Assembly: GCA_020846715.1 (NCBI GenBank)
Contig: JADLDK010000002.1
Coordinates: forward strand, 1 to 41,932
DNA length: 41,932 bases
From: Armatimonadota bacterium
Lineage (GTDB): Bacteria; Armatimonadota; UBA5829; DSUL01
Reading direction: 5' to 3'
Below are positions 4,678-38,889 of this stretch, piece after piece. Both the position numbers and the translations under genes were made by a program. Position 1 is the first letter of the stretch. Every line of letters starts with the position of its first letter. The notes below the pieces were generated by a model, which saw only the letters and a program-made list of their open reading frames with translations, made no database searches and had not been told where the DNA came from.

Positions 4678-4798
4678 GACGTACAAGCCGGATCCAGAAC
4701 GAGAGGCGCGAGCTTTTGAAGTGCTGCTGCGGGAGCTTGAGAAGGCGCGTCCGAAGGCTGAAGAGCAGACGGAAAAACCTGTAGGTACACACACATGA
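4661..4798 (+). CDS. Small protein preceding integrase
   Basis: 45 residues (44 from the second ATG, 4664), charged and helical: MMKILKTYKPDPERE at the N-terminus, then an amphipathic Leu/Glu helix. Its stop overlaps the integrase ATG as ATGA, so it controls or accompanies integrase translation. No family recognised. Size, charge and position next to a serine integrase make a directionality-factor role conceivable, but nothing in the sequence proves it. Confidence 0.5.
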   Translation: MMKILKTYKPDPEREARAFEVLLRELEKARPKAEEQTEKPVGTHT

Positions 4799-6486
4799 GG
4801 GCGGCAGTTTATATGCGCGTCAGCACGGAAGAGCAACGCGAACGGCAGACCATCGAAACGCAGAAGGCTTTCGCGCTACGCTACTGCGAGCAAGCCGGAA
4901 TCACGATCGCGGACTGGTACGCTGACGAAGGTGTCTCCGGAACGGTTGCGCTGGAGTCCAGGACGCAGGGAGCCCGACTCCTGGCAGATGCGATCGCCGG
5001 GCGCTTCGAGATCGTCCTGGTCTATCGAGTGGACCGTCTAGGGCGGGACACGTGGATAATCGAGGACGCTGTTCGGCGGTTGCGAGCCGCGTCCGTCCGC
5101 TTTGCCAGCATAACGGAGATGTTCGACGCCGCCACGCCACACGGCAAACTGCTCCAGTCCATTCTCGGCGCCACAGCGACTTATGAGCGTGACGTCATTG
5201 TGGCGCGATCAATCGAGGCCACGCGTCGGCTGGCGCAAGAGGGCGCGTGGATGGGCGGCATCGTGCCCTATGGTTACAAGGTCGTGGGTGACGGACGCAA
5301 CCGTCGTCTGGCGGTCTCCGAGGACGCGTTACCGGGACTCGAGATGTCGGAGGCTGACGTCATCCGCCTCATTTTCAAACTCTCGGCCGAGGATGGCAAA
5401 TCCTGCAGTCTCATCGCCGACCACCTGAACGCCCTGGGCGTACCGCCAAGCTACGCCAAGGATGAACGCAAGGTACTGCGCGGCAAGCGCAAACAAGCCA
5501 CGGCTGGCATCTGGCGCCAAGGCAGGGTGGGAAACCTGATCCGTTCGTCGACGTACAAGGGTGTCCACGTCTACGGCAAACGGACACGCGGTGGGGCGGA
5601 GCCCATAGAACGCCTGTGTGCGCCGATTGTCTCGGAGGCCGTGTGGGACGCCGCGCAGGCGACTCTACGAAAAAATTTCCTCTTCTGTGTCCGCAACAGC
5701 CGTCGACAGTACCTGCTGCGCGCGCTGATTCGTTGCGGTACCTGCGGTCGCTCCTTTACGGGGGTGCCAGCCAAAGACTATGCCGACGGACGGTTCCGCT
5801 CTTACTACCGGTGCAGCGGTCGCAACCACTACAGGGCTGTGTATGGCGCTGACAAGTGTGATGCGCCAAACGTCAACGGCGAGGATCTGGAGCGCGAAAT
5901 CGTGTCTGATATTCTCGGATTCCTAACGCATCCGCAGACAGTCATCAAACAGCTCACAAGGCGGATGGAGAAGGAGATCGGCGCGGACGGCAGCCGGGCG
6001 AAAGCAGCGGAGCGCTGGCGCCGGCGGCTGGCTGGACTGAACACAGAACGGGACCGCATTCTGGTCTTGTTTCGCAAAGACCTCATCACTGAAGAAGAGC
6101 TGCAGCAGCAGCTCGACGATATTCGGGCGGCGTCCGATTTGGCCAGCAAGGAACTGGCGAAACTCAGCGCTGGCGCTGACCGTGAGACTCAGTTGGCGGA
6201 TTATCTCAACAGAGCCGAGCAGATACTGCACAAGCTGAAAGGGCTGGCGGCAGGAGACCTCAGCTATAGCGTCAAGCGCGCGTTGGTCGAGGCGCTGGTG
6301 GGAGGAATCAAGATCAAGGCGACAGAGATGCCTGATGGTCGCAAGGCAGCGCGAGTACTGGTGACGTACCTCTTTGCGCCGGTCAGAACTGGGATTGATA
6401 ACCACACGGACATCCATGCGGATATCAATCCGGGTTTGGAGCGTAGCTTCACGCTCATCGCGCGCACGCGAGGCGCGAAGCAATGA
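4795..6486 (+). CDS. Large serine recombinase (integrase)
   Basis: 563 residues. The resolvase catalytic domain (1-145) has the nucleophile Ser10 in YMRVSTEEQ and the VYRVDRLGRD block (76-85) with the conserved arginines. A recombinase domain follows (about 155-290), then a zinc ribbon with Cys314, Cys317, Cys340 and Cys355, and a coiled-coil region (about 390-470) as in phage large serine integrases. The enzyme would integrate the phage by recombining attP with a host attB, needing a separate directionality factor for excision. Unusually it sits inside the early operon, overlapping genes on both sides, with no non-coding DNA nearby for attP. No catalytic residue appears lost. Confidence 0.93.
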   Translation: MRAAVYMRVSTEEQRERQTIETQKAFALRYCEQAGITIADWYADEGVSGTVALESRTQGARLLADAIAGRFEIVLVYRVDRLGRDTWIIEDAVRRLRAASVRFASITEMFDAATPHGKLLQSILGATATYERDVIVARSIEATRRLAQEGAWMGGIVPYGYKVVGDGRNRRLAVSEDALPGLEMSEADVIRLIFKLSAEDGKSCSLIADHLNALGVPPSYAKDERKVLRGKRKQATAGIWRQGRVGNLIRSSTYKGVHVYGKRTRGGAEPIERLCAPIVSEAVWDAAQATLRKNFLFCVRNSRRQYLLRALIRCGTCGRSFTGVPAKDYADGRFRSYYRCSGRNHYRAVYGADKCDAPNVNGEDLEREIVSDILGFLTHPQTVIKQLTRRMEKEIGADGSRAKAAERWRRRLAGLNTERDRILVLFRKDLITEEELQQQLDDIRAASDLASKELAKLSAGADRETQLADYLNRAEQILHKLKGLAAGDLSYSVKRALVEALVGGIKIKATEMPDGRKAARVLVTYLFAPVRTGIDNHTDIHADINPGLERSFTLIARTRGAKQ

Positions 6487-6695: not shown

Positions 6696-6986
6696 CTCTC
6701 TCACAGAGAAACAGTGGATGCGACAGGTGGTGGACCTGGCCAAAACTCTCGGCTGGAGCACGTATCACCCGTACCTCTCGATCTACTCAGCCAAGGGCTG
6801 GCCTGATCTGGCACTCTGGCGCGAGCGCCTGATACTGGCAGAGCTCAAGACCTCTAATGGCCGGTTGTCACCGTCTCAGGTGGAGAGGTTATCACAGGTC
6901 TCAAAACTGCTGGCGTTGAGGTCTACGTCTGGAGGCCCGAGCACCTGGACGAAGTCGTGGCTGTGTTGAGGGAGCGGCGCGGATGA
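6670..6986 (+). pseudogene. VRR-NUC nuclease gene with frameshift
   Basis: From ATG 6670, residues 1-72 match the VRR-NUC (PD-(D/E)xK-like) fold: SAKGWPDLALW and LILAELKT carry the catalytic Asp and Glu-x-Lys. After LSPSQVE the frame runs into an unrelated tail ending at 6969. In the -1 frame the sequence continues as LKTAGVEVYVWRPEHLDEVV, the normal C-terminus of this family, ending at 6986 with an ATGA overlap to the next gene like other junctions here. An extra AG in GAGAGG near 6883-6887 explains it. It may be a mutation or a sequencing error; no canonical slippery heptamer is present. The core catalytic residues precede the shift, so activity could remain. Confidence 0.8.
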
Positions 6987-9532
6987 GTGGATTGCTGACT
7001 CACATTCCGGAAGAGCTGAAGGCGCTGCGGCAGTGGATCCTGTGGCGCGGCGTCCTGCGAGATGGCGACCTGGCAAAAGTGCCGATCGACGTCAACGGCG
7101 CGCCTGGCGCTCAGGTCCATCCCGAGCGGTGGGTTACATTCGAAGAGGCGCTGGCCGCTCTCGAACGTAACCGGGCGGATGGTCTCGGGTTCGCCTTCTG
7201 CCGCGACTCGCGCATTATTGGCATAGACTTGGACGATTGCGTAGATGAAGGCTCTATCACGCGGCAGGCCGACCGCATCGTGCGGCGCCTGAATTCCTAC
7301 ACGGAAGCTTCACCGTCCAAGACCGGCTTACACATCTACGTGATGGCCGAAATGCCGGGCAAGCGAAACCGCTGTCAGAATCTGGAAATCTACCCGGACG
7401 GGCGTTTTTTCACCGTCACCGGCGAGCGCTGGCCCGGAGTTTCTGAACATGTAGAAGAGCGCCAGCAAGAGCTGAACGATATCTACGCGGAGTATTTCCC
7501 GCCAGAGCCGCTGAATCCGGTCGCTCCTGCTGGCGCGCCTCTGGCACTGGGTGATGAAGATCTCCTGGCCAAGGCGTTCAAAGCCAAAAACGGCGCCCGA
7601 TTCTCCTCACTATGGTACGGTGACACTTCCGCTTATAACGCTGATGACTCTCGCGCGGACCTGGCGCTGTGCCGGCTGTTGGCCTTTTGGACAGGGGGAG
7701 ACCCCGCTCAGATCGACCGACTCTTTCGCGCATCGGCGCTTTATCGTCCGAAGTGGGAACGTATCGACTACCGCGCCAGAACCATTGAATGCGCGCTGAC
7801 GGGACAGGCCGAGTTCTACAATGGCCACAAACCGGAGTCTACTGACAGTGCAGGCGAAGACGCAGAGGAATCCGTCGAGGCCGGAGCAAAGCTGCGTGAC
7901 TACAACCTGACCGACATCGGCAACGCAGAGCGGATGGCGCACCTGCACGGTGACTATATCCGCTTCTGCTACACCAACTCATCGTGGTACGTCTGGACTG
8001 GTAAGCAGTGGCTCCTGGACACCTCCGGCGCCGTCGAGCGCCGAGCGATAAGCACCATCCGCGGATTCTATCGTGAGGCGGGGGCGGCAGAAGAAGCGGA
8101 CCGTCGAAAAGTCCTGGCAAAGTGGGCGCTGACCTCCGAAGCTGGTCCGCGCGTGAAGGCGATGATCGAGATCACAAAGGCAAGCGTGCCGGTCTCGCTG
8201 GAAGAGTTCGACCGCGACGTGTGGCTCCTCAACTGCAGGAACGGCGTGGTGGATCTGAGAACTGGCAACCTGCTGGAGCACGACCCGCGCCTGATGCAGT
8301 CCAAAATCGCACCCGTGCTCTATGAGCCAGGAGTTGACCAGAGTCTATGGCTGTCGTTTCTCGCTGACGCAACCGGTGGAGACACAGAGCTGATGGCTTT
8401 CCTCCAACGCGCGGTCGGCTACTCAGTTAGTGCATCCGTCAACGAGGAAGTCCTCCTGTTTGTCCACGGACCCGGCGCATCCGGCAAAAGCACGTTTATT
8501 GAATCCATCCGCTCGGCACTCGGAGATTACGCCACGACGCTCGACTTTGAGGTCCTACTCAAAAAGGATTTCTCGAGCGGTGGAACCGGGCCCAACGCAG
8601 AGCTGGCGAAGTTGCCCGGTGTGCGCTTCGCCGCGTCAGAAGAAGTGGATCAGGGCAAGAAGCTGGCCGAAGGGCTTGTCAAGAACCTGACCGGCAACAC
8701 TCAGATTTCCGCTCGCGCGCCGCACGCCAAACGCGCAACGGAGTTCGTTCCTCAGTTCAAGCTGTGGCTGGTCGCAAACGATGCGCCCAACGTACGAGCT
8801 GACGATGACGCTCTCTGGCGCAGGATCCTGCGCTGTCCATTCGAGCAGGTTGTGCCACCCGAAAAGCGCGACCGGACACTCAAGGAGCGCCTGCGAGATC
8901 CGGCGATCGGCGGGAAGCAGATCCTCGCCTGGGCTGTCCAGGGCTGCCTCGACTGGCTGGGCCAGGGGCTGAATCCCCCGGAGGGCGTGATACAGGCAAC
9001 GGAAAAGCTGCGCACAGGAATGGATCCGTTGTCCGACTGGATTGAAGATCGCTGCGTTCTCAGCCCCTCCATCTTTACTCGACAATCTGAATTGCGTCAG
9101 AATTATGACGATTGGTGCCATGAAGTTGGCGCGCGACCAGTCGGCAAAAACACATTCGCGGCAAGCCTTAGACGAGTCGGAGGTGAAAGTCACGTCTCGA
9201 ATTCGGTCCGCGGGTGGTTCGGAATCGGCCTAAAACTACCCGAAAGTGTAGATCCAGTACGACCCGGGTCGTACTGCAGTACGACCCGAGAAGACCCCAG
9301 AAATACCGGAAATCAAGCTCAAAATGAGGATTTTCAGTACGACAGTACGACTACTCCATGTAAAGTTCCCGCAAAATTATCTCATGAAGGAAGTTTCCCG
9401 CAAAGGTCGTACTCGGTCGTACTGGATTCTGAAAACGGCCAAAATACCACTTTTGATGAAAGTGTGACCGTGCGCAAAAATGCCGATGGCACTATCACGC
9501 GCTATCTGCCAGATGGGAGTGTTGAGATATGA
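6983..9532 (+). CDS. Primase-polymerase / SF3 helicase
   Basis: 849 residues. The N-terminal 250 residues resemble an archaeo-eukaryotic primase-polymerase: GIDLDD (about 80-85) supplies metal-binding acids and SPSKTGLHIYV the nearby His, as in phage NrS-1 type polymerases. A linker follows, then a D5/P4-type helicase: N-terminal cap (about 310-460), Walker A GPGASGKS (496-503), and the conserved LWLVANDAP and ALWRRILRCPF motifs of superfamily 3. It would open the origin, prime and perhaps extend DNA. The last 90 residues are low-complexity, and their DNA carries iterons, so the 3' end probably doubles as the origin. Start ATG overlaps the VRR-NUC stop in its corrected frame. Confidence 0.88.
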   Translation: MSGLLTHIPEELKALRQWILWRGVLRDGDLAKVPIDVNGAPGAQVHPERWVTFEEALAALERNRADGLGFAFCRDSRIIGIDLDDCVDEGSITRQADRIVRRLNSYTEASPSKTGLHIYVMAEMPGKRNRCQNLEIYPDGRFFTVTGERWPGVSEHVEERQQELNDIYAEYFPPEPLNPVAPAGAPLALGDEDLLAKAFKAKNGARFSSLWYGDTSAYNADDSRADLALCRLLAFWTGGDPAQIDRLFRASALYRPKWERIDYRARTIECALTGQAEFYNGHKPESTDSAGEDAEESVEAGAKLRDYNLTDIGNAERMAHLHGDYIRFCYTNSSWYVWTGKQWLLDTSGAVERRAISTIRGFYREAGAAEEADRRKVLAKWALTSEAGPRVKAMIEITKASVPVSLEEFDRDVWLLNCRNGVVDLRTGNLLEHDPRLMQSKIAPVLYEPGVDQSLWLSFLADATGGDTELMAFLQRAVGYSVSASVNEEVLLFVHGPGASGKSTFIESIRSALGDYATTLDFEVLLKKDFSSGGTGPNAELAKLPGVRFAASEEVDQGKKLAEGLVKNLTGNTQISARAPHAKRATEFVPQFKLWLVANDAPNVRADDDALWRRILRCPFEQVVPPEKRDRTLKERLRDPAIGGKQILAWAVQGCLDWLGQGLNPPEGVIQATEKLRTGMDPLSDWIEDRCVLSPSIFTRQSELRQNYDDWCHEVGARPVGKNTFAASLRRVGGESHVSNSVRGWFGIGLKLPESVDPVRPGSYCSTTREDPRNTGNQAQNEDFQYDSTTTPCKVPAKLSHEGSFPQRSYSVVLDSENGQNTTFDESVTVRKNADGTITRYLPDGSVEI
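9256..9423. other. Iteron cluster, probable replication origin
   Basis: Seven copies of AGTACGAC or its complement lie within 168 bases: 9256, 9278, 9336 and 9344 on plus, 9268, 9406 and 9416 on minus (leftmost base given). The first two form the perfect 20-base palindrome AGTACGACCCGGGTCGTACT (9256-9275). Between the outer groups lies an AT-richer stretch flanked by two TTCCCGCAAA repeats (9366-9375, 9395-9404). Iterons plus an AT-rich element inside the replication initiator gene is the arrangement of lambda-type origins. Function is inferred. Confidence 0.75.
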
Positions 9533-13375: not shown

Positions 13376-13711
13376 TTACAGCACTGCGATAATTTCGCAG
13401 TCGCTGACCACCTCTTCGCCCGGATCAAATGTCCGGGCATCATCCAGACCTGTGCATTGCCATCCAGCTACTAAGTACGGGACGCCAACATATCGATCCG
13501 GGTCATGCTCCAGCACCTTAAACGCTGTGGATAAGCGCAAGATGCACGTCCCCGGCAGTGTCTCATCAGTTACAGTGTTGTCCATCCACTCACGAGAAGG
13601 GGGGAAGATGTGGCCAACAAGAAGGCCGGGTGTGTCCCACCGGACGCCAAAAACCAAATCATCTGCGTATTGGTCGATGATGTTTTGGATTTTTTCTGGG
13701 TCTAATTTCAT
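13376..13711 (-). CDS. Hypothetical protein, first of leftward operon
   Basis: 111 residues, acidic, starting MKLDPEKIQNIIDQYADDLV. Mixed alpha/beta by pattern; two central prolines and LVAGWQCTGLDDARTFDPG. No family recognised. Strong AAGGAG with the GGAGAACGAAA leader. First gene after the promoter at 13793-13765. Confidence 0.6.
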   Translation of the reverse strand: MKLDPEKIQNIIDQYADDLVFGVRWDTPGLLVGHIFPPSREWMDNTVTDETLPGTCILRLSTAFKVLEHDPDRYVGVPYLVAGWQCTGLDDARTFDPGEEVVSDCEIIAVL

Positions 13712-13764
13712 TTTCGTTCTCCTTATCCCTTCGGGCTGGTCTCAACTGACCAACCTCTATATAT

Positions 13765-13793
13765 ATTATCGCACTTTGACGCGATAAAGTCAA
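13765..13793 (-). promoter_or_regulatory. Leftward promoter with nested operators
   Basis: On the minus strand TTGACT (13793-13788), a 17-base spacer and GATAAT (13770-13765) make a promoter for the leftward operon. Two inverted repeats overlap it: TTATCGC/GCGATAA (13766-13772/13781-13787) and TTGAC/GTCAA (13776-13780/13789-13793). A regulator bound there would cover both boxes. Candidates are the excisionase-like protein, the RHH-like protein or the main repressor. Confidence 0.72.
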
Positions 13794-14036
13794 GGGTTCT
13801 GGAGAAAGTTTTTGAGATTTTTTGAGCGTGCGGGCAGAAAATCTAACACCTCCAGAGCACTTAATACATGAGAGAGTTTCCCACCCTCCTCTCTCGCGCG
13901 CCCCGGGGCGTAACCCTAGACCGGGGCGCGCAGTTATTCGGTGGCATTCTCCTTCTCTCTGCGAGGGAGCTCAGGCGCCTGTTTTGGACCTTTTCGGACG
14001 CTTGGGCTTCCCCGCACTTTTTGATTGTGATCTGCT
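13794..14036. other. Non-coding region, candidate cos/pac
   Basis: No convincing gene. Two perfect hairpins abut: GAGAGAG/CTCTCTC (13870-13876/13889-13895) and GCGCGCCCCGG/CCGGGGCGCGC (13896-13906/13921-13931). No U-tract follows, so they are not ordinary terminators. A non-coding, palindromic stretch just before the small terminase gene is where cos or pac sites usually lie. An attP is the main alternative, since the integrase has no adjacent spacer. The late promoter should also be here, but I cannot point to a good one. Confidence 0.5.
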
Positions 14037-14450
14037 ATGTGTCGCTCAGAGGATGAAAAAGCCGCAGCGCTCGCGGCGCTAAAAGCCAACGGCGGTAAAT
14101 TGCGCAAGACCGCGCGGGACACGGGAATCCCGTTCAGCACCATCCAGAAGTGGCGAGACGAGTGTACGAAAAGCGGGTCACAGAAAAAAAACGACGCTGA
14201 GATTGCCCTGGCGGATCTCTACGAGCGGCTGGCGCGACAGGTCTGCGAGCTGCTACCGAGTGCCATGGCCAGCGCGGATGCGAGGGAGCTCGGGACGTTG
14301 CTCGGGATCCTGACCGACAAAATGCAGCTTTTGCGAGGAGAGCCAAACAATATCACGCAGCAGGACCACAACGTTGCCGGCCGAGTCGAGCTCGAGGTTG
14401 TTCGCGGCTACGGAGACTGGCTGGAGAATCGCCGAGAGCCTGAGGGCTGA
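14037..14450 (+). CDS. Terminase small subunit
   Basis: 137 residues. The N-terminal helix-turn-helix (AALKANGGKLRKTARDTGIPFSTIQKW) is the DNA-recognition fold of small terminases; a helical oligomerisation region follows. It would recognise the packaging site and load the large subunit. ATG 14037 follows in-frame stops; GTGATC upstream can pair with the 16S 3' end. The stop lies 77 bases inside the longest frame of the large terminase. Confidence 0.85.
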   Translation: MCRSEDEKAAALAALKANGGKLRKTARDTGIPFSTIQKWRDECTKSGSQKKNDAEIALADLYERLARQVCELLPSAMASADARELGTLLGILTDKMQLLRGEPNNITQQDHNVAGRVELEVVRGYGDWLENRREPEG

Positions 14451-16806
14451 CGCAGCTCGCCACCTGATTCCGTTTACGCTTTGGACGTTTCGCAAGTACC
14501 GGTTCGCGGCGCACCTCAACGCACTCGCCGAGGCGCTGGAGGCTGTGGACCGGGGCGAAATCAAGCGCCTGATCGTGGTTATGCCGCCGCGCCACGGGAA
14601 AAGCGAGCTGGTCAGCGTGCGTTTTCCGGCGTGGTGGCTCGGACGGCATCCGGATAAGCGTTTTGTCCTGGTCTGCTACGCTGCCGATCTCGCGGAGCGC
14701 CACAGCCGGATGGTCCGGGCGTGTGTCCAGAGTCCGGCTTACAGACAGGTTTTTGACGGCATGTCTATCGATCAGACGAGCCGCAGCGCACAGCAGTGGG
14801 ACCTGGCGGGGCGTCGCGGCGGGATGAAAGCAGTCGGCGTCGGAGGTCCGCTTACTGGGTTCGGCGCTGATTGCCTTGCTGGCAACACGTTGATCAAAAC
14901 GGAGTGCGGCTTGCGCACAATCCGTGAAATTACACGGGCAGGCTCGCCGGTTATGGTGCTAACATGTAACCATAAAACCGGCACACTTGAGTATCGCCTG
15001 GCGCGTCCTCACAAGCCGAGGCTAACGCTTGTGCTCTACACGATTACGCTCGCAAATGGCACAAAAGTGCAAGCGACGAAAGAGCATCCATTTTTTGTTG
15101 CCGGTCGAGGCTATGTCAGAGCCTCCAGTCTGGAGATCGGCGATGAAGTATATCTGTATTCGGTGCGGAGATGCGTTTCACGCCAAACCGAGCAAAAACA
15201 AAAAGTACTGCACCCAGCAGTGTTACGACGCAGCGCGGCGAGAGGCTGTGCCAGTGCTCACGTGCGACCATTGCGGGCACACCTTTACAGGTCCGCCGCC
15301 CGCCCACGTTGCTCGTGCAGAACGTCATTTTTGCTCCTGGGCATGTTACGCGACAGCAGAAAGCCAAAAGCACGCTCGGAAATGTCCCATTTGCGGAGGG
15401 CGAGTGCATCGAGGCTGCACTTATTGCAGTCCGCAGTGTTCGGGCATAGCCAAACGCAAAGCCAAGCCACCCTGCAAAATGTGTGGCCTCCCATGCACTC
15501 ACGGACGTCTCTATTGCAGCCGAGCTTGTGCGGACAAAGCTCATTCGCAAGACGTTGCGGGCGAAAAGAACGGCAGGTTTCAACACGGACAAGGGAGCGC
15601 GCCCTACAAAATGGGGTTTCGTTCGCAGACCCGGCGTGCCGTGATCGAACGCGACCGAGTTTGTCAGCATTGCGGCGCGGACAGTCTTCTCACGGTTCAC
15701 CATATCAACGAGATAAAACAGGACGATCGGCTGGCCAATCTCCAGCTTCTGTGCCGGCCGTGCCATATGCGATTGCACAAATTGAAAAATCCCACCTTGC
15801 CGCACCTGAAGAAGTCTACAACCTCAGCGTAGAAGGCAACGAAAACTTTTTCGCAAATGGCGTTTTAGTCCACAACTGCCTTTTAGTCGATGACCCGATC
15901 AAAAACCGGCAGGACGCGGACTCCGAAACGGTGCGCAACGCCGTGTGGGACTGGTGGACCTCCACCGCCTACACCCGGCTGGAGGACAATGCCGCGATTG
16001 TCGTGGTCAACACCCGCTGGCACGAGGACGATCTGACAGGGCGTCTGTTGGCGGCGCAGGGCACTGACCCGCGCGCCGATCAGTGGCACATCGTGCATTT
16101 CCCTGCGATCTCTGACGCTGGTGAGGCGCTCTGGCCGGAAAAATATCCGCTTGAAGAGCTGGAGCGCATCCGGGCCAACACCGGACCTTACGACTGGGAG
16201 GCGCTTTATCAAGGGCGTCCGGCGGCGCCCGAGGGCGCGATGTTCAAGCGCGCCTGGTTTCAGATTATCGACGAGCCGCCGCAGGGCTTGACCTGGGTAC
16301 GCGGATGGGACCTGGCCGCCAGCTCCAAAGAGACGGCCGACTATACGGCTGGCGCGCGTTGCGCGTTGGATGCCGACGGCAACCTGTTCATCTCTCACAT
16401 CGAGCGCCGGCGCCAGGAGTGGCCCGAGACCATTAAGGATATGGCGTTTCTGGCCTCGATGGGCGACCGGGGTTGCCGGTGGGGCGTGGAAACGCAAGGG
16501 TTTCAGCTCTCGGCGGTGCAGCAGCTTCTCTCAGACAACCGCTTTTCGGGAGTGGCGATTCAGAGCGTCAGGGCAGACCGTGACAAGGTGAGCCGCGCGG
16601 CCGCTTGGCAGAGTAGGGCAGCGGCCGGAAAGGTCTTTCTCATTCGAGGTGAGTGGAATCAGGCGTTTGTCGCGGAGGCGTGCGGCTTCCCGGTGGGAAA
16701 GCATGACGACCAGATCGACGCGGTCTCAATCGCATGGGAGCTGCTGACAGACGGATTTATCCAGCCGCGTGTTTACAGCGCGGAGGACTTTGACGAGGAC
16801 GAATGA
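14374..16806 (+). CDS. Terminase large subunit precursor with intein
   Basis: 810 codons from TTG 14374; other in-frame starts up to about 14440 are possible because this overlaps the small subunit. The extein ATPase domain has Walker A MPPRHGKS (70-77) and, after the intein, Walker B LLVDDP. The C-terminal RNase H-like nuclease shows GWDLAAS (Asp647) and HDDQID (777-782). Residues 167-501 are an intein; splicing would join ...GFGAD to CLLVDDP and give about 475 residues, the usual size for HK97-type terminases. Without splicing the ATPase core is broken just before Walker B, so packaging should depend on splicing. Residues about 260-465 of the precursor have no protein-like pattern because that DNA encodes the HNH gene in another frame. 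Confidence 0.93.
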   Translation: MPAESSSRLFAATETGWRIAESLRADAARHLIPFTLWTFRKYRFAAHLNALAEALEAVDRGEIKRLIVVMPPRHGKSELVSVRFPAWWLGRHPDKRFVLVCYAADLAERHSRMVRACVQSPAYRQVFDGMSIDQTSRSAQQWDLAGRRGGMKAVGVGGPLTGFGADCLAGNTLIKTECGLRTIREITRAGSPVMVLTCNHKTGTLEYRLARPHKPRLTLVLYTITLANGTKVQATKEHPFFVAGRGYVRASSLEIGDEVYLYSVRRCVSRQTEQKQKVLHPAVLRRSAARGCASAHVRPLRAHLYRSAARPRCSCRTSFLLLGMLRDSRKPKARSEMSHLRRASASRLHLLQSAVFGHSQTQSQATLQNVWPPMHSRTSLLQPSLCGQSSFARRCGRKERQVSTRTRERALQNGVSFADPACRDRTRPSLSALRRGQSSHGSPYQRDKTGRSAGQSPASVPAVPYAIAQIEKSHLAAPEEVYNLSVEGNENFFANGVLVHNCLLVDDPIKNRQDADSETVRNAVWDWWTSTAYTRLEDNAAIVVVNTRWHEDDLTGRLLAAQGTDPRADQWHIVHFPAISDAGEALWPEKYPLEELERIRANTGPYDWEALYQGRPAAPEGAMFKRAWFQIIDEPPQGLTWVRGWDLAASSKETADYTAGARCALDADGNLFISHIERRRQEWPETIKDMAFLASMGDRGCRWGVETQGFQLSAVQQLLSDNRFSGVAIQSVRADRDKVSRAAAWQSRAAAGKVFLIRGEWNQAFVAEACGFPVGKHDDQIDAVSIAWELLTDGFIQPRVYSAEDFDEDE
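14872..15876 (+). mobile_element. Intein in terminase, 335 residues
   Basis: Block A begins CLAGNTLIKTECG with Cys1. Block B is VQATKEHPFFV with the TxxH needed for N-S acyl shift. Block F is EEVYNLSVEGNENFF. Block G is NGVLVHN with the final His-Asn, followed by Cys+1. All residues needed for class 1 splicing are present. Blocks A and B occupy about the first 95 residues and F-G the last 30; between them no dodecapeptide or HNH is found in this frame. The endonuclease is instead in the +1 frame. The insertion is immediately before Walker B, a typical conserved intein target. Confidence 0.93.
15143..15832 (+). CDS. HNH homing endonuclease nested out of frame
   Basis: 229 residues in the +1 frame relative to the terminase. 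ATG 15143 has GGAG (15132-15135) seven bases upstream. Four tandem treble-clef knuckles of pattern CxxC...CxxxC (Cys 5/8/23/27, 41/44/64/68, 81/84/95/99, 111/114/125/129) lead to an HNH domain: CQHC (174-177), His186-His187, Asn199, CRPCH (204-208). The knuckles would give DNA specificity and the HNH cut an intein-less terminase allele, driving homing. The gene starts where block B ends and stops within block F, so it exactly fills the intein's endonuclease position but in another frame. Confidence 0.9.
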   Translation: MKYICIRCGDAFHAKPSKNKKYCTQQCYDAARREAVPVLTCDHCGHTFTGPPPAHVARAERHFCSWACYATAESQKHARKCPICGGRVHRGCTYCSPQCSGIAKRKAKPPCKMCGLPCTHGRLYCSRACADKAHSQDVAGEKNGRFQHGQGSAPYKMGFRSQTRRAVIERDRVCQHCGADSLLTVHHINEIKQDDRLANLQLLCRPCHMRLHKLKNPTLPHLKKSTTSA

Positions 16807-18266
16807 CGTTTTTAGAGCGCATTGGCAAAATCTTTCGTTTCTCGCAGAGCTTCACGCGCTTCGAGTTCTCCTGGGCTGAGCGTCACGGCTTGCGGGACAC
16901 CTCCGCACGGGCGAATCTCGAGCGCAACCGGGCCTACGTCTTTGCGTGCGCGTCACTCAACGCAAGCGTCTGCGCCAACGTGCCGTTGCGTTTGTACGCG
17001 CGTGGGTCCACCGAGCGCTTCCGGACCCGCGCTCTCGGCACATCCGAAAAAGCGTGGCTGAAAAGCGGCGCGCTCGCGGACACGCAGGACGCCGTTGAGG
17101 TTGTGGATCCTGAGCATCCGCTGTTGGACTTGTTGACCAAAGCCAATCCGGTCATGACCGGAGTTGAGCTGCGGGAGCTGAAGTTTTTGCACCAGGAGCT
17201 GACCGGAAATCACTATCAGCACGTGGAGACGCGGAGCGTCGGAGGCCGACAGGTGCCGGTGGCTCTGTGGCCGCTGCAGCCGCAGTACACCCGCGTGGTC
17301 CCGGACGACAAGCTCATCATCCGCGGCTACCTTTACGGCAAAGACGACAACAATGCGCAGGCGTACGGCGCCGATGAGATTATCCATTTTCGCTATCCGA
17401 ATCCTGAGAGTCTGATTATCGGCATGGCGCCACTTGAGGCGGTTGCGCAGGCAGCGGACCGCCAGCAGGCCAGAGCCGCGTATGCGGAGGCGCTTTTCGC
17501 CAACAACGCGCGGCCGGACTTTTTGATCAAATACAAGGGGCAGGTCCAGGCCGAGAGCCGGCGTGCGCTTTACGAGGACTGGGATCGGCGCTTCAAAGGT
17601 GTCCGCAAGGCGGGCAAGCCGGTCATTCTCGACCAGGACGGAGAGATCGTTACGCTGGCGATGACGCCCAGAGACGCCTATCTGGTTGAGGCTGCCGACA
17701 TGGACAAAGCAGAGATCGCTGCAGCATTTGGCGTCCCGTTGACGCTTTTGGAGATGAGCGACAGCAACAAGGCCAGTGCTATCGCCGGAGAGACAGGCTA
17801 TCTGCGCCGGGCTGTCGTCCCGCGCCTGATGCGTGATCAGGCTGTGCTCAACGAGATGCTCTGTCCGCTCTTCGATGGGCGACTGTTTGTGGCGTACGAA
17901 AATCCGGTTCCGGATGACGTGGCGCTGGATGTGATGCGCCACAGGACGTACGTGCAGATTGGCGCGATGAGCGTAAACGAAGTGCGTTCGGAAATCGGGT
18001 TGGAGCCAATAGAGGGCGGCGATACTTACGACACGGCCGCTTCTCGCTTTGAGCGCGCGCAGGCGATTGCGAGTCCCGAGAATTCTTTGGAGTCTGCGCC
18101 GAAGGCTCTTGGCGCGCACTCTCACGCTTGCACTTGCAGCGCATGTGAGTCCAAAGCACTCAATCCACCGCTGAGCGCCCAGGAGCGGATGCTGGCAACG
18201 CCGGTGCGTCAGTTTTACCGGGACTGGGGAGCTCAGATTGAGGCGCGGCTGCGTGGCCAAAGCTGA
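16803..18266 (+). CDS. Portal protein, HK97 family
   Basis: 487 residues, usual length for the family. The N-terminal region (NRAYVFACASLNASVCANVPLRLY) and the LEMSDSNKASAIAGETGYLR segment are typical of HK97-type portals. Twelve copies form the ring at the capsid vertex through which DNA enters. A cysteine-bearing stretch (SHACTCSACESKALN, about 440-455) just before the C-terminus is unusual for a portal. ATGA overlap with the terminase. Confidence 0.9.
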   Translation: MTFLERIGKIFRFSQSFTRFEFSWAERHGLRDTSARANLERNRAYVFACASLNASVCANVPLRLYARGSTERFRTRALGTSEKAWLKSGALADTQDAVEVVDPEHPLLDLLTKANPVMTGVELRELKFLHQELTGNHYQHVETRSVGGRQVPVALWPLQPQYTRVVPDDKLIIRGYLYGKDDNNAQAYGADEIIHFRYPNPESLIIGMAPLEAVAQAADRQQARAAYAEALFANNARPDFLIKYKGQVQAESRRALYEDWDRRFKGVRKAGKPVILDQDGEIVTLAMTPRDAYLVEAADMDKAEIAAAFGVPLTLLEMSDSNKASAIAGETGYLRRAVVPRLMRDQAVLNEMLCPLFDGRLFVAYENPVPDDVALDVMRHRTYVQIGAMSVNEVRSEIGLEPIEGGDTYDTAASRFERAQAIASPENSLESAPKALGAHSHACTCSACESKALNPPLSAQERMLATPVRQFYRDWGAQIEARLRGQS

Positions 18267-21605: not shown

Positions 21606-22949
21606 ATGAAAGTAAGGCTCATAAAAGCCTGGCGGGACCACGTCGAGGGCGACATTCTGCGCATCGACGACGAGGACGACGCCAAGGCTCTGATTGAAGC
21701 GGGCTTTGCGGAAGAGTACGACCTGGCCGCTGATCTGGCCGCTCAGAAGGCGGCAGAAGACGCGCAGGCGGCTCAGCGCAAAGCCATTGACGAAGCCGTG
21801 GCCAGGGCTCTCGCCGAGAAAGCTCCGGCTGTGGAAAATGACAACGCCAAGGGCGCTCATCCGCGCATCGAAGTCAAGGATCCGAAAGACTCTGAGGACT
21901 ATCGCAAAAAGGGCGATTACAAGAGCTTCGGGCACTTCCTGACGGATGTGCGGCAGATGGCGACCGGGCGGCAGTCTGATGCAATGAAACGCTGGCGCGA
22001 GGCTACGGAAAAGGGCGGTCTCGGGCTGAACGAAGGCTCGGCGGCTGACGGCGGGGCTCTGGTCCCGACGGACTTCCTGGCCGAGCTTCTGATGATTCAG
22101 TCCAGGGAGGCACAGCTCTTCGCCCGCACGACGCAGATCCCGGTAACAGGTGGCGCGGTGTATATCCCGCGCGTCAATGAGACATCTCGCGCAAACGGCA
22201 GCCGCTACGGCGGGGTCAGCGTGACCTGGCTCGGAGAGGGCGCTACGATACCCTCGACGCGCCCGGCATTCGCAAACGTGCGCCTGGAACCCAAAAAGCT
22301 CGCGGCAATCTGTTACGTGACAGAGGAGCTGCTGGACGACAGTCCGCTTGCGGTGGAGACAATCGTTAACACGATTGTGGGCAAGGAGCTTGCCTACACC
22401 ATTGACGAGGCCATCCTCAACGGCACGGGCGCCGGGCAGCCGCTAGGTATCATGAACTCCGCTGCGAAGGTAGCCACTACGCGCAAGTCCGGCGGCCATG
22501 TGAAGTACGAAGACATCGTGGCGATGTATTCCCGGCTTCACGCGGCCTCCAGGGCTAACGCCGCGTGGTTCATCAATCAGGCGGTGATGGCAGACCTATT
22601 GGCGATGCCGTTTGACTCCGGATCAACTGTGCCGATTCCCGTGTGGATTCCACCGGGCGGCGCGGCTGATTCGCCGTACGGACGGCTTCTCGGCCTGCCG
22701 GTCATCGAGATCGAGCAGTGCGCGGCGCTTGGCACCACGGGCGACATCGTGCTGGCGGATCTGTCTCAGTATCTGACCGCCACCAAAGGCGGTGTGCGAG
22801 CGGATGCGTCGATGCATGTCCAGTTCGTGACCGACCAGCTCGCCTACCGGTTTGTCCAGCGCGTTGACGGACAGCCCTGGTGGGCTAGTGTGTTGACGCC
22901 GGCCAAGGGCAGCGCAACGCAGGCCCCATTTGTGGTCATCGCCACCTGA
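21606..22949 (+). CDS. Major capsid protein, HK97 fold
   Basis: 447 residues. The first 130 are charged and Ala/Glu-rich, a scaffold (delta) domain to be cut by the upstream protease. The HK97 core follows: GGLGLNEGSAADGGALVP near the likely mature N-terminus, TFARTTQIPV-type E-loop region, and LNGTGAGQPLGIMNS. GAGGTAA-like ribosome site at 21594. The 135-base gap before it holds no gene I can support. It should be the most abundant virion protein. Confidence 0.92.
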   Translation: MKVRLIKAWRDHVEGDILRIDDEDDAKALIEAGFAEEYDLAADLAAQKAAEDAQAAQRKAIDEAVARALAEKAPAVENDNAKGAHPRIEVKDPKDSEDYRKKGDYKSFGHFLTDVRQMATGRQSDAMKRWREATEKGGLGLNEGSAADGGALVPTDFLAELLMIQSREAQLFARTTQIPVTGGAVYIPRVNETSRANGSRYGGVSVTWLGEGATIPSTRPAFANVRLEPKKLAAICYVTEELLDDSPLAVETIVNTIVGKELAYTIDEAILNGTGAGQPLGIMNSAAKVATTRKSGGHVKYEDIVAMYSRLHAASRANAAWFINQAVMADLLAMPFDSGSTVPIPVWIPPGGAADSPYGRLLGLPVIEIEQCAALGTTGDIVLADLSQYLTATKGGVRADASMHVQFVTDQLAYRFVQRVDGQPWWASVLTPAKGSATQAPFVVIAT

Positions 22950-26845: not shown

Positions 26846-27033
26846 ACTGGGAAAGCCTGCGCGTGTGGTTGATCGAAGAGAAGAAGTTGCAGCCTTCTGA
26901 GATTGACAATATGACGCCGCGCCAGACGCGTGCCCTGGCGAAAGGCTGGGAGGCGTGGGACAAACTTTTGAGCTGGGAGCGGGCCGATGAGCGCGACCGC
27001 ACCCTGATGACACTTCATGGAATTGCCCCCTGA
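26417..27033 (+). CDS. Frameshifted tail chaperone (gpGT-like)
   Basis: The heptamer C CCC CCG (26818-26824) allows a -1 slip from CCC-CCG to CCC-CCC. The -1 frame continues GTC CAG ... with LDWESLRVWLIEEKKLQPSE, MTPRQTRALAKGWEAW and ends at 27033, overlapping the tape-measure ATG. The fused product has 136+69 residues, total 205. This is the classic G/GT arrangement; the extension has its own coding quality, so the shift is well supported. Confidence 0.82.
26818..26824 (+). promoter_or_regulatory. -1 ribosomal frameshift site
   Basis: C CCC CCG in the zero frame of the tail chaperone fits X XXY YYZ with X=Y=C. Seven codons later the zero frame stops at TAG (26843-26845). The -1 frame stays open to 27033. 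GC-rich sequence just downstream may fold to stimulate slippage. Confidence 0.8.
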
Positions 27034-28346
27034 TGCTAGACGACAGACAGATAGATCAGGCCTTTATTGAGATTCGCGCCGACCTGAGCAAGCTTGGCGG
27101 CGATATGCAGAAGGCTCGCCAGATCATCAACGATGCCACGCGTACATCTGGCGCTGAGCGGCCGATGACACCGGCGGCGCGGGCTTATCAGGAAGCCCTG
27201 CGCCAGACGCCAGGCACGGACGAGTATCGGGAAGTCCAGCGCATTTCCAATCAGATCGCACGACAGAACCGCCAGACGCTGATTCAGGAAGCGCGCGATG
27301 AAGTGGAGGCCCGCAAACGCCGCACTGAAGAGCTGAAGGCGCAGATGGAGGCACGGGCTCGCACTGAAGACGATGAGATCCGCCGCAAGGAGGATTTCGC
27401 CAGGCGCGAGGAGCTGGCGGCCAAACAACAGCAGAAGGCAGCCGATGCCGCCGCTGCGGCAAGACAGAAGCTGTGGGGAATTGGTGGCGGGAACCTCGGA
27501 GTGATGACCGAAATGGGAGCTCTCTTTGGCGGCATGCAGGTGGCGCGCGGCGTGCAGGGGATGCTTGAAGGTCAAGGCGGCACTGGCGCGCAGGGCAGCA
27601 TTGCCGGCGGCCTGATGCAGATGCTCCCGATTCCCGGTGTGCAGATGGCTGGAATGGCGGTTGGCGGTGTGTCACAGATAGTGGATGCGATAAACAAATC
27701 CACAGCGCGTGCGATGATGCCCAAGGACATCGATATGAGTGTTGAAGGCCGCCGCCAAAGAGCACGCGAGGGGCTTGAGGCAGCCTATGCCGAGCGCGAG
27801 GAAAGTGGAGGCTTCATCGGACGCATCCGCTCTTTTGCCAGCTTTATGATTAACCCGGAGCGGACAATGCGTGATCTTTCGCGGCTTGGCTCTCGCGGAA
27901 GGCAGCTCGAGGAAGAAGTGAACGATCCGAACTACTACGCCGCGCAGCAAGCCACCGAGATGCTCGATGCGGCGTCTCCGGCGCGATCAGCCCGCCGCAC
28001 GGCTACGCGCTACCGCGACTTGGCGCGAGTTCTGCGTGATAAGGCCAGGCGTGGTCTTGAGCCGCGCGGCAACGAATTGGCCGATGAGCTGGAACGGGCA
28101 GCCGGTAACGCGCTGGCGGGGATAAACCCGGCGTCGGAGCGCGAAGCCAGAATGAGCTCAATCGGCGATATCTATCGCAATGCGGCGCTGGTGGGCGCCA
28201 ATGAGCGCTACTCCCGCAGCGGCATCAACCCGCAGGCGCGTACGGCAGACAACACAGACAAAATGGCTCAGCTTTTGAATGAGATGTTGAACGTCCTCAA
28301 AGGGCGAAACGGCGGTGTGAAAACCGCAGGGGCGGTACTCGGATGA
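27033..28346 (+). CDS. Tape measure protein
   Basis: 437 residues. Long charged coiled-coil (about 60-145, QEARDEVEARKRRTEEL...AKQQQKAADAAAAA), then a Gly/Met-rich hydrophobic stretch (about 150-225, GVMTEMGALFGGMQVARGV) that may insert in the host membrane, then more helices. Tape length sets tail length; at the usual 1.5 angstrom per residue this predicts about 65 nm, a short siphovirus tail. Position after the G/GT pair supports the call. Confidence 0.85.
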   Translation: MLDDRQIDQAFIEIRADLSKLGGDMQKARQIINDATRTSGAERPMTPAARAYQEALRQTPGTDEYREVQRISNQIARQNRQTLIQEARDEVEARKRRTEELKAQMEARARTEDDEIRRKEDFARREELAAKQQQKAADAAAAARQKLWGIGGGNLGVMTEMGALFGGMQVARGVQGMLEGQGGTGAQGSIAGGLMQMLPIPGVQMAGMAVGGVSQIVDAINKSTARAMMPKDIDMSVEGRRQRAREGLEAAYAEREESGGFIGRIRSFASFMINPERTMRDLSRLGSRGRQLEEEVNDPNYYAAQQATEMLDAASPARSARRTATRYRDLARVLRDKARRGLEPRGNELADELERAAGNALAGINPASEREARMSSIGDIYRNAALVGANERYSRSGINPQARTADNTDKMAQLLNEMLNVLKGRNGGVKTAGAVLG

Positions 28347-29248: not shown

Positions 29249-30018
29249 GTGTGCGCCGGTTTCGCAGAGGAGATACTCTTACTGCCGAGCGTCTGAACGA
29301 TCTGGTTGATGCGGTGAATGCCGGCATCACGCTGCGTCCGGGCCCAGGGCTCGAAGTGCGTCAGACGCGAAACGGAACGGTCATTAGCTTGCGACCGGGT
29401 GCGCTTGAGCCCGGTGGTTCCTCCAAAGACGGATTCCACGCGCGTATCACAGCCGCAAATGCCCTGGACGCCACACGCTGGCGCTACAGCTTTGAGCAAG
29501 TCCAAGAGAAGCCCACAGCGTGGAAGACCGTCTCCGGCGGCAAGACCGGTGTTGCGAAGAATCTGGCGGAAACTCCGGACGTCACTTTCCAGTACCAGCC
29601 GGTGAAGATCGGCGCGGTGGTCTGGATGAAGGCGCGTGTCGTCGCACAAGAGGAGGGAGACTCTGAGACGCACTACTGGTTTGAGTGCGCTCAGAACGCG
29701 GACTGTGACCCGGGCGTGTCCAAGCCTTTGTTGTCTGTGGGCAGCTACCGTGCGCCGGCCACAGACTCCTGGAGCGTGGTGAAAAATCCGGGCGCCGGTT
29801 TTACGCTTGCCGTGCCGACAAACGTTTTCTACGATCCGTCGAGCGGCATCTTTACCGGTAATGCGCGCTTTCTCTACGTTGATGACACAGGGCGCATTGT
29901 GGGTGTCTCGCCTCAATTTGAAGGTGGCGTGGTATTCCGCGCCGCTGATTGTGACGATGAGCAGGGCGGCTCCGGCGATGTTGACGGGCGCATGATTATT
30001 GTGCAGGCGGCTCCTTGA
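29245..30018 (+). CDS. Tail-tip protein, unknown
   Basis: 257 residues. N-terminus RRFRRGDTLTAERLNDLVDAVN is a pattern seen at the start of phage tail proteins in this position (FxxGDxLxAxxLNxxxxAV). The rest is beta-rich with a CAQNADCD pair. Stop overlaps the next TTG start (TTGA). Confidence 0.5.
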   Translation: MSVRRFRRGDTLTAERLNDLVDAVNAGITLRPGPGLEVRQTRNGTVISLRPGALEPGGSSKDGFHARITAANALDATRWRYSFEQVQEKPTAWKTVSGGKTGVAKNLAETPDVTFQYQPVKIGAVVWMKARVVAQEEGDSETHYWFECAQNADCDPGVSKPLLSVGSYRAPATDSWSVVKNPGAGFTLAVPTNVFYDPSSGIFTGNARFLYVDDTGRIVGVSPQFEGGVVFRAADCDDEQGGSGDVDGRMIIVQAAP

Positions 30019-38113: not shown

Positions 38114-38889
38114 GCTACTGGGGCAACCGAAAACCTCCGCTTGGGGTAAGGTACGAAGTTGATTGGGGGCATCCACTCGCCAAAGGGTTGAAGGGTATAA
38201 ATATCTACAATGGTGAGAACCAGTGGAAATTAAGTAACCGCGATACGAAGCACTCATCCGGAATATCAGCGATAACACGCGATGGTATTGGCATGCAAGG
38301 TGGCGGCATGACAACCATGCCGGATTGGTACGCATTACCAAGCCAACCATTACCGGATTTCACTCTCATCTGCCGGATGAAAATTACAAGCTCGACATCA
38401 AGTAGCAATAACTATTGGCTTTATAGCCGATATGCAAGTCGCGTCGACGACATCAGAATATGCACGGTTTATCAACAGGTCACCACGGATTACTTGCGGT
38501 TATCGTTGAACGACTTTCAACTCACTTGGAACTCAGGCTTTACCGTTAAGTCTGGCGACACATGGACAATAGCCGTCACGTATTCTAGCCCGAACGCAAT
38601 ACTGTATATTGATGGTGTCGAAGATTCTTCAGGTACAGGCAGCCAGAACACTCGAATTGGCAACTCCGCCATGAACGTTGTAAACCCGCAAAACATGGGT
38701 GGAAACAGCAACCCTTTTGGGGTTTACCAAATGATGTACGACCGTGCGTTATCCCCTGAAGAAATAATGGCGGTGCAACTTGAGCCTTACGCGATGATTC
38801 TGCCGCCTGACCTGCCTGTTTTCTATTCGATTCCATCTGCTGCGTTTCAGGCAGCGTGGGCGATGAACTCCAATTTGGTACTGTCATGA
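38110..38889 (+). CDS. LamG-like (concanavalin A fold) protein
   Basis: 259 residues. PDFTLICRMKI, TWTIAVTYSSPNAILYIDGVEDSS and MYDRALSPEEIMAVQLEPY are the hallmark strands of LamG/ConA-like domains, which bind glycans. In phages they occur on fibres and capsids. The gene is visibly richer in A+T than its neighbours and uses different codons, so it was probably acquired recently. Confidence 0.8.
   Translation: MSYWGNRKPPLGVRYEVDWGHPLAKGLKGINIYNGENQWKLSNRDTKHSSGISAITRDGIGMQGGGMTTMPDWYALPSQPLPDFTLICRMKITSSTSSSNNYWLYSRYASRVDDIRICTVYQQVTTDYLRLSLNDFQLTWNSGFTVKSGDTWTIAVTYSSPNAILYIDGVEDSSGTGSQNTRIGNSAMNVVNPQNMGGNSNPFGVYQMMYDRALSPEEIMAVQLEPYAMILPPDLPVFYSIPSAAFQAAWAMNSNLVLS

What the first reader, a model, noticed from the sequence alone, without database searches (positions are those of the whole stretch)
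14872..15876. Intein with its homing endonuclease nested in a different reading frame
Seen: a complete intein (Cys1, TxxH, His-Asn, Cys+1) interrupts the terminase just before Walker B. Its frame stays open for 335 codons, but about 205 codons in the middle have no protein-like pattern. That same DNA encodes, in the +1 frame, a 229-residue four-zinc-knuckle HNH protein with its own ATG and GGAG ribosome site, ending inside block F. Known: intein endonucleases are normally in-frame domains, and free-standing ones occur between split-intein halves. Inference: here the endonuclease is a separate overprinted gene, and its DNA read out of frame serves as the intein linker. I know of no described example of this exact arrangement, but cannot search.
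Basis: partly seen in the sequence, partly recalled or inferred. Interest (0 to 1): 0.95.

Follow-up and report, generated by a model that had tools for sequence, protein, structure and literature searches.

The report
Intein hiding endonuclease in second frame
A predicted self-splicing insert in a phage DNA-packaging gene carries, in a shifted reading frame of the same DNA, a second gene predicted to encode a DNA-cutting enzyme that likely spreads the insert, and the same two-in-one layout recurs in dozens of other virus and bacterial sequences.

Summary
A complete intein (14872-15876) interrupts a phage terminase just before Walker B. Its frame stays open, but its middle is mostly predicted disordered. 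The same DNA encodes a 229-residue, four-zinc-knuckle HNH protein in the +1 frame (15143-15832).

It is neither an artefact nor unique. Of 79 viral loci found with an HNH profile, 45 carry the HNH in the +1 frame of an intein-bearing reading. Of 86 distinct inteins of 200-420 aa among the loci held, 83 have a second same-strand frame (+1 or +2) open for at least 150 codons. Of 80 such frames scanned, 53 match HNH_3, 36 HNH and 7 DUF559; the intein frame of the same DNA matches no endonuclease (0 of 80).

Synonymous shuffles expect 543 stops in the intein frames; there are none. In 87 of 87 informative pairs, substitutions peak at endonuclease codon position 3. A 98%-identical pair differs by one 510-base in-frame loss that leaves a mini-intein.

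Best reading: a class of two-frame inteins whose homing endonuclease gene doubles as a passive intein linker. Splicing, cleavage and translation start are inferred. The closest precedent found, the ShiLan insertion, has no splicing domain. One unread preprint may overlap.

The parts
14374..14871 (+). Terminase large subunit, N-extein (start codon uncertain; TTG 14374 is the first in the ORF)
   Evidence: ORF; weak NF033889 terminase match to residues 50-168, E 2.4e-6, below its cut-off; intein-less relatives align up to the site
14872..15876 (+). Intein, 335 codons, one open frame; inserted before the Walker B strand (LLVDDP)
   Evidence: PF14890 E 8.4e-15, TIGR01443 and TIGR01445, translation, empty sites in 6 of 9 relatives aligned
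14872..15159 (+). N-terminal HINT part (Cys1, TxxH, GDEV block)
   Evidence: pLDDT 91-97 for residues 1-90; PDB intein matches
15160..15801 (+). Intein-frame linker: the endonuclease DNA read out of frame
   Evidence: pLDDT under 50 over most of it; 0 of 80 in-frame spans, the window's included, match an endonuclease family
15802..15876 (+). C-terminal HINT part (blocks F and G, His-Asn)
   Evidence: TIGR01443 E 4.3e-8; pLDDT 92-96
15132..15135 (+). GGAG, possible ribosome-binding site of the endonuclease frame
   Evidence: Sequence, 7-base gap to ATG 15143. Across 79 loci such motifs are not clearly enriched over other frames
15143..15832 (+). HNH endonuclease, 229 aa, +1 frame relative to the intein
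   Evidence: PF01844 E 3e-7; model pLDDT 82.9, pTM 0.42; family of 36 with invariant H186, H187, N199, H208
15662..15781 (+). HNH motif (residues 174-213 of the endonuclease)
   Evidence: PF01844 match span; pLDDT blocks 89-96 over residues 171-210
15877..16806 (+). Terminase large subunit, C-extein (Cys+1, Walker B, nuclease domain)
   Evidence: PF03237 and PF17289; TIGR01630
14037..14450 (+). Probable terminase small subunit (HTH protein; inferred from position)
   Evidence: PF13384 E 1.3e-5; no PHROG match at E<=0.001
16803..18266 (+). Phage portal protein
   Evidence: PF04860 E 1.3e-54

Best explanation
This is a two-frame intein: one stretch of DNA inside a phage terminase gene reads as a complete intein (splicing predicted) in the terminase frame and, shifted by +1, as a complete HNH endonuclease gene whose product likely acts as the intein's homing enzyme. 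Steps. (1) Shown: the intein reading is open from Cys1 to His-Asn/Cys+1 and matches both halves of a HINT domain. (2) Predicted: the precursor splices and releases functional terminase, and the roughly 200 residues between the HINT halves are a mostly disordered passenger. (3) Inferred: ribosomes start a second time inside the intein, at or near ATG 15143, and make the separate HNH protein. (4) Inferred: the HNH protein cuts intein-less terminase alleles at the Walker B site, so that repair copies the whole element. (5) Shown in relatives: selection keeps the endonuclease's amino acids and mainly keeps the intein frame free of stops; in one pair the endonuclease gene is missing through an in-frame deletion that leaves a mini-intein. 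(6) Shown: the layout recurs, with +1 and +2 versions and two nuclease types by Pfam (HNH and DUF559).
For: Domains, model and insertion site. Same layout and frame offset in Gordonia phage Clown and Synechococcus phage S-EIV1; a +2 version in the records of Acinetobacter phage Highwayman, Tetrasphaera phage TJE1 and a Rhodobacteraceae phage (intein motifs there read by eye). Surveys: 45 of 79 HNH-relative loci nested at +1 and 0 at +2; 83 of 86 distinct inteins of 200-420 aa have a second frame open for at least 150 codons. Pfam at E<=0.01: HNH_3 in 53, HNH in 36 and DUF559 in 7 of 80 shifted-frame ORFs, against an endonuclease in 0 of 80 intein-frame readings of the same DNA. Shuffles: 0 stops against 542.8 expected in intein frames, and 0 against 425.2 in endonuclease frames. 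Substitutions: endonuclease codon position 3 is highest in 87 of 87 pairs with at least 20 changes, while host codon position 3 is highest outside the middle in 87 of 87. Deletion pair L111/L135. Controls: in-frame LAGLIDADG inteins L199, L201 and L230 have no long second frame.
Against: No experiment shows splicing, HNH synthesis or cleavage. Shine-Dalgarno motifs before the endonuclease frame are not clearly enriched: 20 of 79 loci against 17 and 12 in the other two frames; under the rule some loci show no candidate start (L111, L155, L158, L184, L186; for L155 the scan range was cut short). The intein-frame shuffle is conditional, because one search kept only inteins whose two blocks share one stop-free segment. 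The window's HNH has few close relatives (1 protein at E<=0.001), so its own substitution pattern was not measured. In the phylum survey, 20 of 21 inteins parsed had no recognised nested endonuclease, so the layout is not general. One control fails: L174's second intein, in-frame LAGLIDADG, also has 346 open codons at +2. In-frame HNH inteins also exist: L084 here, cyanophage CL131 dCTP deaminase in print.
Confidence: 0.87

Rival explanations
1. The endonuclease frame is reached by a programmed ribosomal frameshift within the intein, making an N-extein/intein-N/HNH fusion instead of a free HNH protein.
For: The offset is the same in all 45 nested HNH-relative loci; some loci have no candidate start codon under the rule used; Shine-Dalgarno enrichment is weak. 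I did not scan for slippery sequences.
Against: ATG codons near the expected start of the endonuclease frame occur in 65 of 79 loci against 42 and 35 in the other frames; some loci have long Shine-Dalgarno matches (L162, L204, L214).
Confidence: 0.12
2. The HNH protein serves DNA packaging rather than homing; HNH proteins encoded next to terminase genes are known packaging components.
For: HNH packaging proteins are described (Kala 2014, seen only as a reference); freestanding relatives of the +2-type HNH sit beside terminase genes in phages BP10 and EauM-23.
Against: Nested nucleases also sit in inteins of readings that look like helicases, and there they match DUF559; the HNH gene is mostly missing in L135, whose terminase flanks match L111; intein-less terminase relatives exist.
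Confidence: 0.08
3. The endonuclease is a dead remnant; only the intein is functional.
For: Mini-inteins, one of them at the same site as a nested relative, show that the endonuclease is dispensable.
Against: The HNH residues (H186, H187, N199, H208) and zinc cysteines are intact in the window's protein; relatives show purifying selection on the endonuclease; the window's HNH frame has no stop where 3.2 are expected.
Confidence: 0.08
4. Sequencing or assembly error: two compensating indels in an ordinary in-frame intein-HNH fusion.
For: No reads were available.
Against: The same offset occurs in many contigs and in two phages; neither frame has a stop where many are expected in 80 loci.
Confidence: 0.01
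5. The second open frame is a chance by-product of base composition.
For: An antisense ORF of 229 codons also happens to be open here (15116-15805).
Against: Shifted-frame ORFs match endonuclease families down to E 1.1e-22; the layout holds at 32-34% GC (L019, L020, L113, L145); shuffles.
Confidence: 0.005

Closest known systems
[quoted passage not shown]
   Same: An HNH gene in a shifted frame of an insertion that stays open in the host frame; thought to home; translation start unresolved
   Different: That insertion has no intein splicing motifs or fold and is thought to stay in the protein; here a complete HINT intein surrounds the endonuclease and the insertion would be removed. Other host genes and sites, and also DUF559 nucleases in relatives
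Bifunctional inteins with an in-frame endonuclease domain (LAGLIDADG in L199, L201, L230; HNH in cyanophage CL131 dCTP deaminase, PMC6293099, and in L084)
   Same: HINT halves flank the endonuclease DNA
   Different: There the endonuclease is a domain of the intein and is translated in frame; here it is a separate reading, and in relatives the intein frame through it is the less conserved one
Phage terminase inteins (Kelley 2016, PMC5050341)
   Same: Inteins in the terminase ATPase domain, one site in Walker B; splicing was shown there for five terminase inteins
   Different: Cleavage was tested there for two inteins with an identifiable endonuclease domain; the passages read mention no shifted-frame endonuclease
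Split inteins with a free-standing endonuclease gene between the halves (recalled, not searched)
   Same: The endonuclease is a separate gene associated with the intein
   Different: Here the intein reading is continuous through the endonuclease gene, so splicing would be in cis

Membership tests
Intein (HINT protein-splicing element) | Cys/Ser1, block B TxxH, His-Asn at the end, Cys/Ser/Thr+1 | tested here: met
   Translation; C1, H72, H334, N335 invariant in 38 inteins; Cys+1
Intein (HINT protein-splicing element) | HINT fold and insertion in a conserved site of a host protein with an intein-less counterpart | tested here: met
   PDB intein matches, best E 1.0e-6; empty sites in 6 of 9 relatives aligned: L237-L240, L245, L249; for L241-L243 the script picked a reading that did not align
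Intein (HINT protein-splicing element) | Self-splicing activity | not testable with these tools
   -
HNH homing endonuclease | HNH motif with metal and zinc ligands | tested here: met
   PF01844 E 3e-7; invariant residues; model. Foldseek gave no PDB match at E<=0.001; matches to proteins that I recall as HNH nucleases are local, E about 0.03-0.25
HNH homing endonuclease | Cuts intein-less alleles and promotes copying | not testable with these tools
   Indirect only: patchy presence and one in-frame loss
Canonical bifunctional intein | Endonuclease domain in the intein's own frame | tested here: not met
   The window's in-frame span matches only intein families; HNH is in the +1 frame
ShiLan-type out-of-frame HNH insertion | No splicing domain in the insertion | tested here: not met
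   A complete splicing domain is present
Split intein with free-standing endonuclease | Intein halves encoded in separate readings | tested here: not met
   One open reading of 810 codons spans both halves
Self-splicing group I or II intron | Intron RNA structure | tested here: not met
   No Rfam match at E<=1 in 13500-17500

The most novel reading that the evidence does not exclude
Two-frame inteins are a widespread, previously unrecognised class of mobile element in phages and their hosts: the homing endonuclease is a separate gene in a +1 or +2 frame, and its DNA read out of frame is the intein's linker. The layout arose more than once and recruited at least two nuclease types, so overprinting frees the endonuclease from the splicing protein while locking both to one stretch of DNA.
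Probability: 0.68. Interest if true: 0.88.

Novelty: new variant of a known kind. Interest (0 to 1): 0.83.

Why it matters
An intein of this length with no endonuclease in its own frame would usually be read as degenerate. In the set examined here nearly all such inteins have a long second frame, and at least 58 of 80 of those frames match a nuclease family (53 HNH_3 plus 5 DUF559 scanned singly without an HNH_3 match). That changes how intein mobility, loss and spread are counted. It gives a large natural set of long same-strand overlapping readings in which one is constrained in sequence and the other mainly to stay open. It also raises a testable question: how a ribosome starts a second gene deep inside a translated coding region.

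Tried and rejected
Considered and rejected: assembly error, chance open frame, group I/II intron (Rfam), split intein, canonical in-frame fusion. The first HNH search gave 7 loci; the 4 of 7 that I printed have a short HNH protein in its own reading, and I did not use the 7. Foldseek with the HNH model gave no PDB match at E<=0.001. Six paper searches aimed at intein/out-of-frame wording and four wider ones turned up no shifted-frame endonuclease inside an intein with a splicing domain; only listings were seen except for the four papers named in the report. The preprint 10.1101/2025.01.02.630785 (title mentions 'Non-Canonical Architecture'; seen only as a reference) is not held, so priority is open. 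A test for Shine-Dalgarno enrichment gave a weak result. The splicing-domain tree has 10 well-supported inner branches of 100. In the empty-site alignment 3 of 9 relatives did not align.
Full report
WHAT IS THERE. The window is part of an unnamed 3.2 Mb genome (G000, contig C2) and carries phage genes: a serine-recombinase integrase (4795-6486), a primase (6983-9532) and a major head protein (21606-22949), a probable small terminase (14037-14450), the large terminase (14374-16806) and a portal (16803-18266). The large terminase is interrupted at 14872-15876 by an intein of 335 codons: PF14890 E 8.4e-15, TIGR01443 and TIGR01445. It sits directly before the Walker B strand. Of 9 terminase relatives from other genomes that I aligned, 6 read straight through the site, for example ...TGYGA-LLIIDDPVK in L237; for the other 3 (L241-L243) the script's longest reading did not align there. 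From ATG 15143 to the stop at 15832, in the +1 frame, lies a 229-residue protein with four zinc-knuckle pairs and an HNH motif (PF01844 E 3e-7).

STRUCTURE. Read in the intein frame, the model (38-sequence alignment) has confident HINT ends (pLDDT above 90) and a middle with pLDDT under 50 at 101-147 and 191-293 except residue 277; helices in 149-190 score 55-77 by block. Its best PDB matches are inteins, NrdJ-1 and Mtu RecA, E 1.0e-6 and 1.7e-6. The HNH protein (36-sequence alignment) has mean pLDDT 82.9, with 89-96 over residues 171-210, but low pTM (0.42) and no PDB match at E<=0.001; the top hits are zinc-finger proteins, and local matches to proteins that I recall as HNH nucleases lie at E 0.03-0.25. 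In those 36 sequences H186, H187, N199 and H208 are invariant.

RELATIVES. A protein search of phage records gave 8 records: Gordonia phage Clown (2) and Synechococcus phage S-EIV1 (1) have the HNH inside the annotated terminase in the +1 frame, at the same insertion site; in the 5 halovirus records the match is annotated as an HNH gene of its own (two regions looked at). A search of viral contigs with a profile of the window's, Clown's and S-EIV1's HNH proteins gave 79 loci: 45 have the HNH nested at +1 in a longer open reading followed by an intein C-terminal motif, 34 are not nested, none is nested at +2. The 79 include near-copies. Of the 34 I scanned 9 with Pfam; one of them, L084, holds an in-frame intein with HNH_3 in an AAA ATPase.

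A SURVEY NOT BASED ON HNH ALONE. The loci then held, HNH-derived ones included, were scanned with two intein-block profiles: 123 intein candidates, of which my zinc-knuckle HNH profile hit 46 in the +1 frame, 10 in the +2 frame (weak scores), 0 in frame, and missed 67, many of them mini-inteins. L084 and the S-EIV1-type inteins were not picked up by these block profiles. Of 86 distinct candidates of 200-420 aa, 83 have a second same-strand frame (+1 or +2) open for at least 150 codons; the exceptions are L147, L221 and L230. I dropped these three and three near-copies (L110, L118, L194), leaving 80: 48 at +1 and 32 at +2. Pfam at E<=0.01 on the 80 shifted ORFs: HNH_3 53, HNH 36, DUF559 7 (a member can match several); on the same DNA in the intein frame: seven families, none an endonuclease. 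Of 20 of these ORFs scanned singly, 14 matched HNH_3, 5 DUF559, and L174 nothing. With the DUF559 protein of L188 as query, 5 viral loci came back, and 5 of 5 are nested at +1 (L292 scanned, DUF559). That DUF559 is a Vsr-like nuclease is recalled; Pfam's overlapping MTES_1575 is named a restriction endonuclease.

TWO GROUPS. The +1 group holds terminases at the Walker B site and readings with ...DE/C...HNC/H... junctions that look like helicases (a label from the motif, not tested), the latter with DUF559. The +2 group has other sites. On a tree of the splicing domain alone, +1 and +2 rows are separated by one change, with shuffled labels far higher, but only 10 of 100 inner branches are well supported and the root is unknown, so the tree cannot tell separate origins from a frame switch. 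Phage records with the +2 layout: Highwayman, TJE1 and a Rhodobacteraceae phage; frames were computed and intein motifs read by eye. Phages BP10 and EauM-23 have a relative of the +2-type HNH as an ordinary gene next to the terminase genes, which suggests where a nested gene could have come from (inference).

SELECTION. Permuting synonymous codons so that the endonuclease stays the same gives 542.8 stops in the intein frame over the 80 loci, 0 observed; permuting so that the intein reading stays the same gives 425.2 in the endonuclease frame, 0 observed; 62 and 77 of 80 loci have P<0.05. The first count is conditional, since required both intein blocks in one stop-free segment; for the second I took the longer of two frames. 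Independent of that, among 91 related pairs, 87 have at least 20 changes in the middle. In 87 of 87 the changes are most frequent at endonuclease codon position 3 and the endonuclease is more conserved than the intein-frame reading, while outside the middle the changes peak at host codon position 3. The pairs share loci. The four pairs with fewer changes are uninformative; in one (L155/L194) the intein frame is the more conserved. In 17 pairs sharing no locus (near-copies among them), the sums are 744, 694 and 1311 by endonuclease position. So in relatives the endonuclease is the protein under selection, and the intein reading through it mainly has to stay open. The window itself had no close pair for this test.

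A NATURAL EXPERIMENT. L111 (nested) and L135 (mini-intein of 152 aa) are 98% identical (1033 of 1056 aligned bases) and differ by one 510-base gap that removes most of the HNH gene and keeps the intein frame. Direction (loss rather than gain) is inferred from the remnants of HNH sequence in L135.

CONTROLS. Inteins with an in-frame LAGLIDADG domain (L199, L201, L230) have second frames of at most 54 codons; L174's second intein, also LAGLIDADG, has 346 open codons at +2 and so fails this control. Of 21 inteins parsed from 30 loci of a PF14890 survey over 291 genomes of the phylum, only the window's has a recognisable nested endonuclease; four others have second frames over 120 codons that look unlike proteins by eye and were not scanned, and in-frame endonucleases were not tested there. 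The layout therefore belongs to one set of inteins, not to inteins in general.

HOW IT IS TRANSLATED is open. ATG codons in the endonuclease frame near the expected start occur in 65 of 79 loci, against 42 and 35 in the other frames, but Shine-Dalgarno matches of 5 or more bases only in 20 against 17 and 12, shuffled mean 9.4 (L174 left out). Some loci have long matches (L162, L204, L214), others no candidate. The window has GGAG 7 bases before ATG 15143.

LITERATURE. PMC11855218 (abstract, sections 18 and 19, and passages) describes the ShiLan domain, an out-of-frame HNH in phage methylases without splicing motifs. PMC5050341 (passages) shows that terminase inteins splice and that two cut intein-less DNA. 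PMC6293099 (passages) has an in-frame HNH intein. PMC12613952 (passages) mentions an out-of-frame HNH in a methylase. In ten searches I saw no paper on a shifted-frame endonuclease inside an intein with a splicing domain; the library is open-access only, and the preprint 10.1101/2025.01.02.630785 could not be read.

Noticed in passing
L111 and L135: 98%-identical terminase inteins differing by one 510-base in-frame gap: likely recent loss of the nested endonuclease leaving a mini-intein.
   Followed up: yes
L175, L188-L191, L193, L291-L295: Readings that look like helicases carry inteins with a DUF559-type nuclease nested at +1 (DUF559 seen singly in L175, L188, L189, L193 and L292), including Longilinea arvoryzae KOME-1 (L188).
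   Followed up: partly
L002:2162-3301: In phage Clown the HNH frame stays open through the intein's end into the C-extein before its stop.
   Followed up: no
L231 and L232: Acinetobacter phages: Highwayman has a related HNH nested at +2 in its terminase, BP10 has it as a free gene upstream of the terminase genes; their terminases are not close, so this is no clean before/after pair.
   Followed up: partly
L084:1492-4005: AAA ATPase with an intein that carries HNH_3 in frame, a contrasting ordinary arrangement.
   Followed up: partly
L174:5121-6446: In-frame LAGLIDADG intein that nevertheless has a 346-codon open +2 frame; not explained.
   Followed up: no
window 15116-15805, minus strand: A 229-codon antisense ORF is also open across the endonuclease; no domain was sought.
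   Followed up: no
window 4795-6486: Serine-recombinase integrase, suggesting that the window is a prophage or temperate phage.
   Followed up: no
window 27033-28346, 30015-32774, 38856-40559: Long ORFs in the phage region without Pfam or PHROG match at E<=0.001.
   Followed up: no
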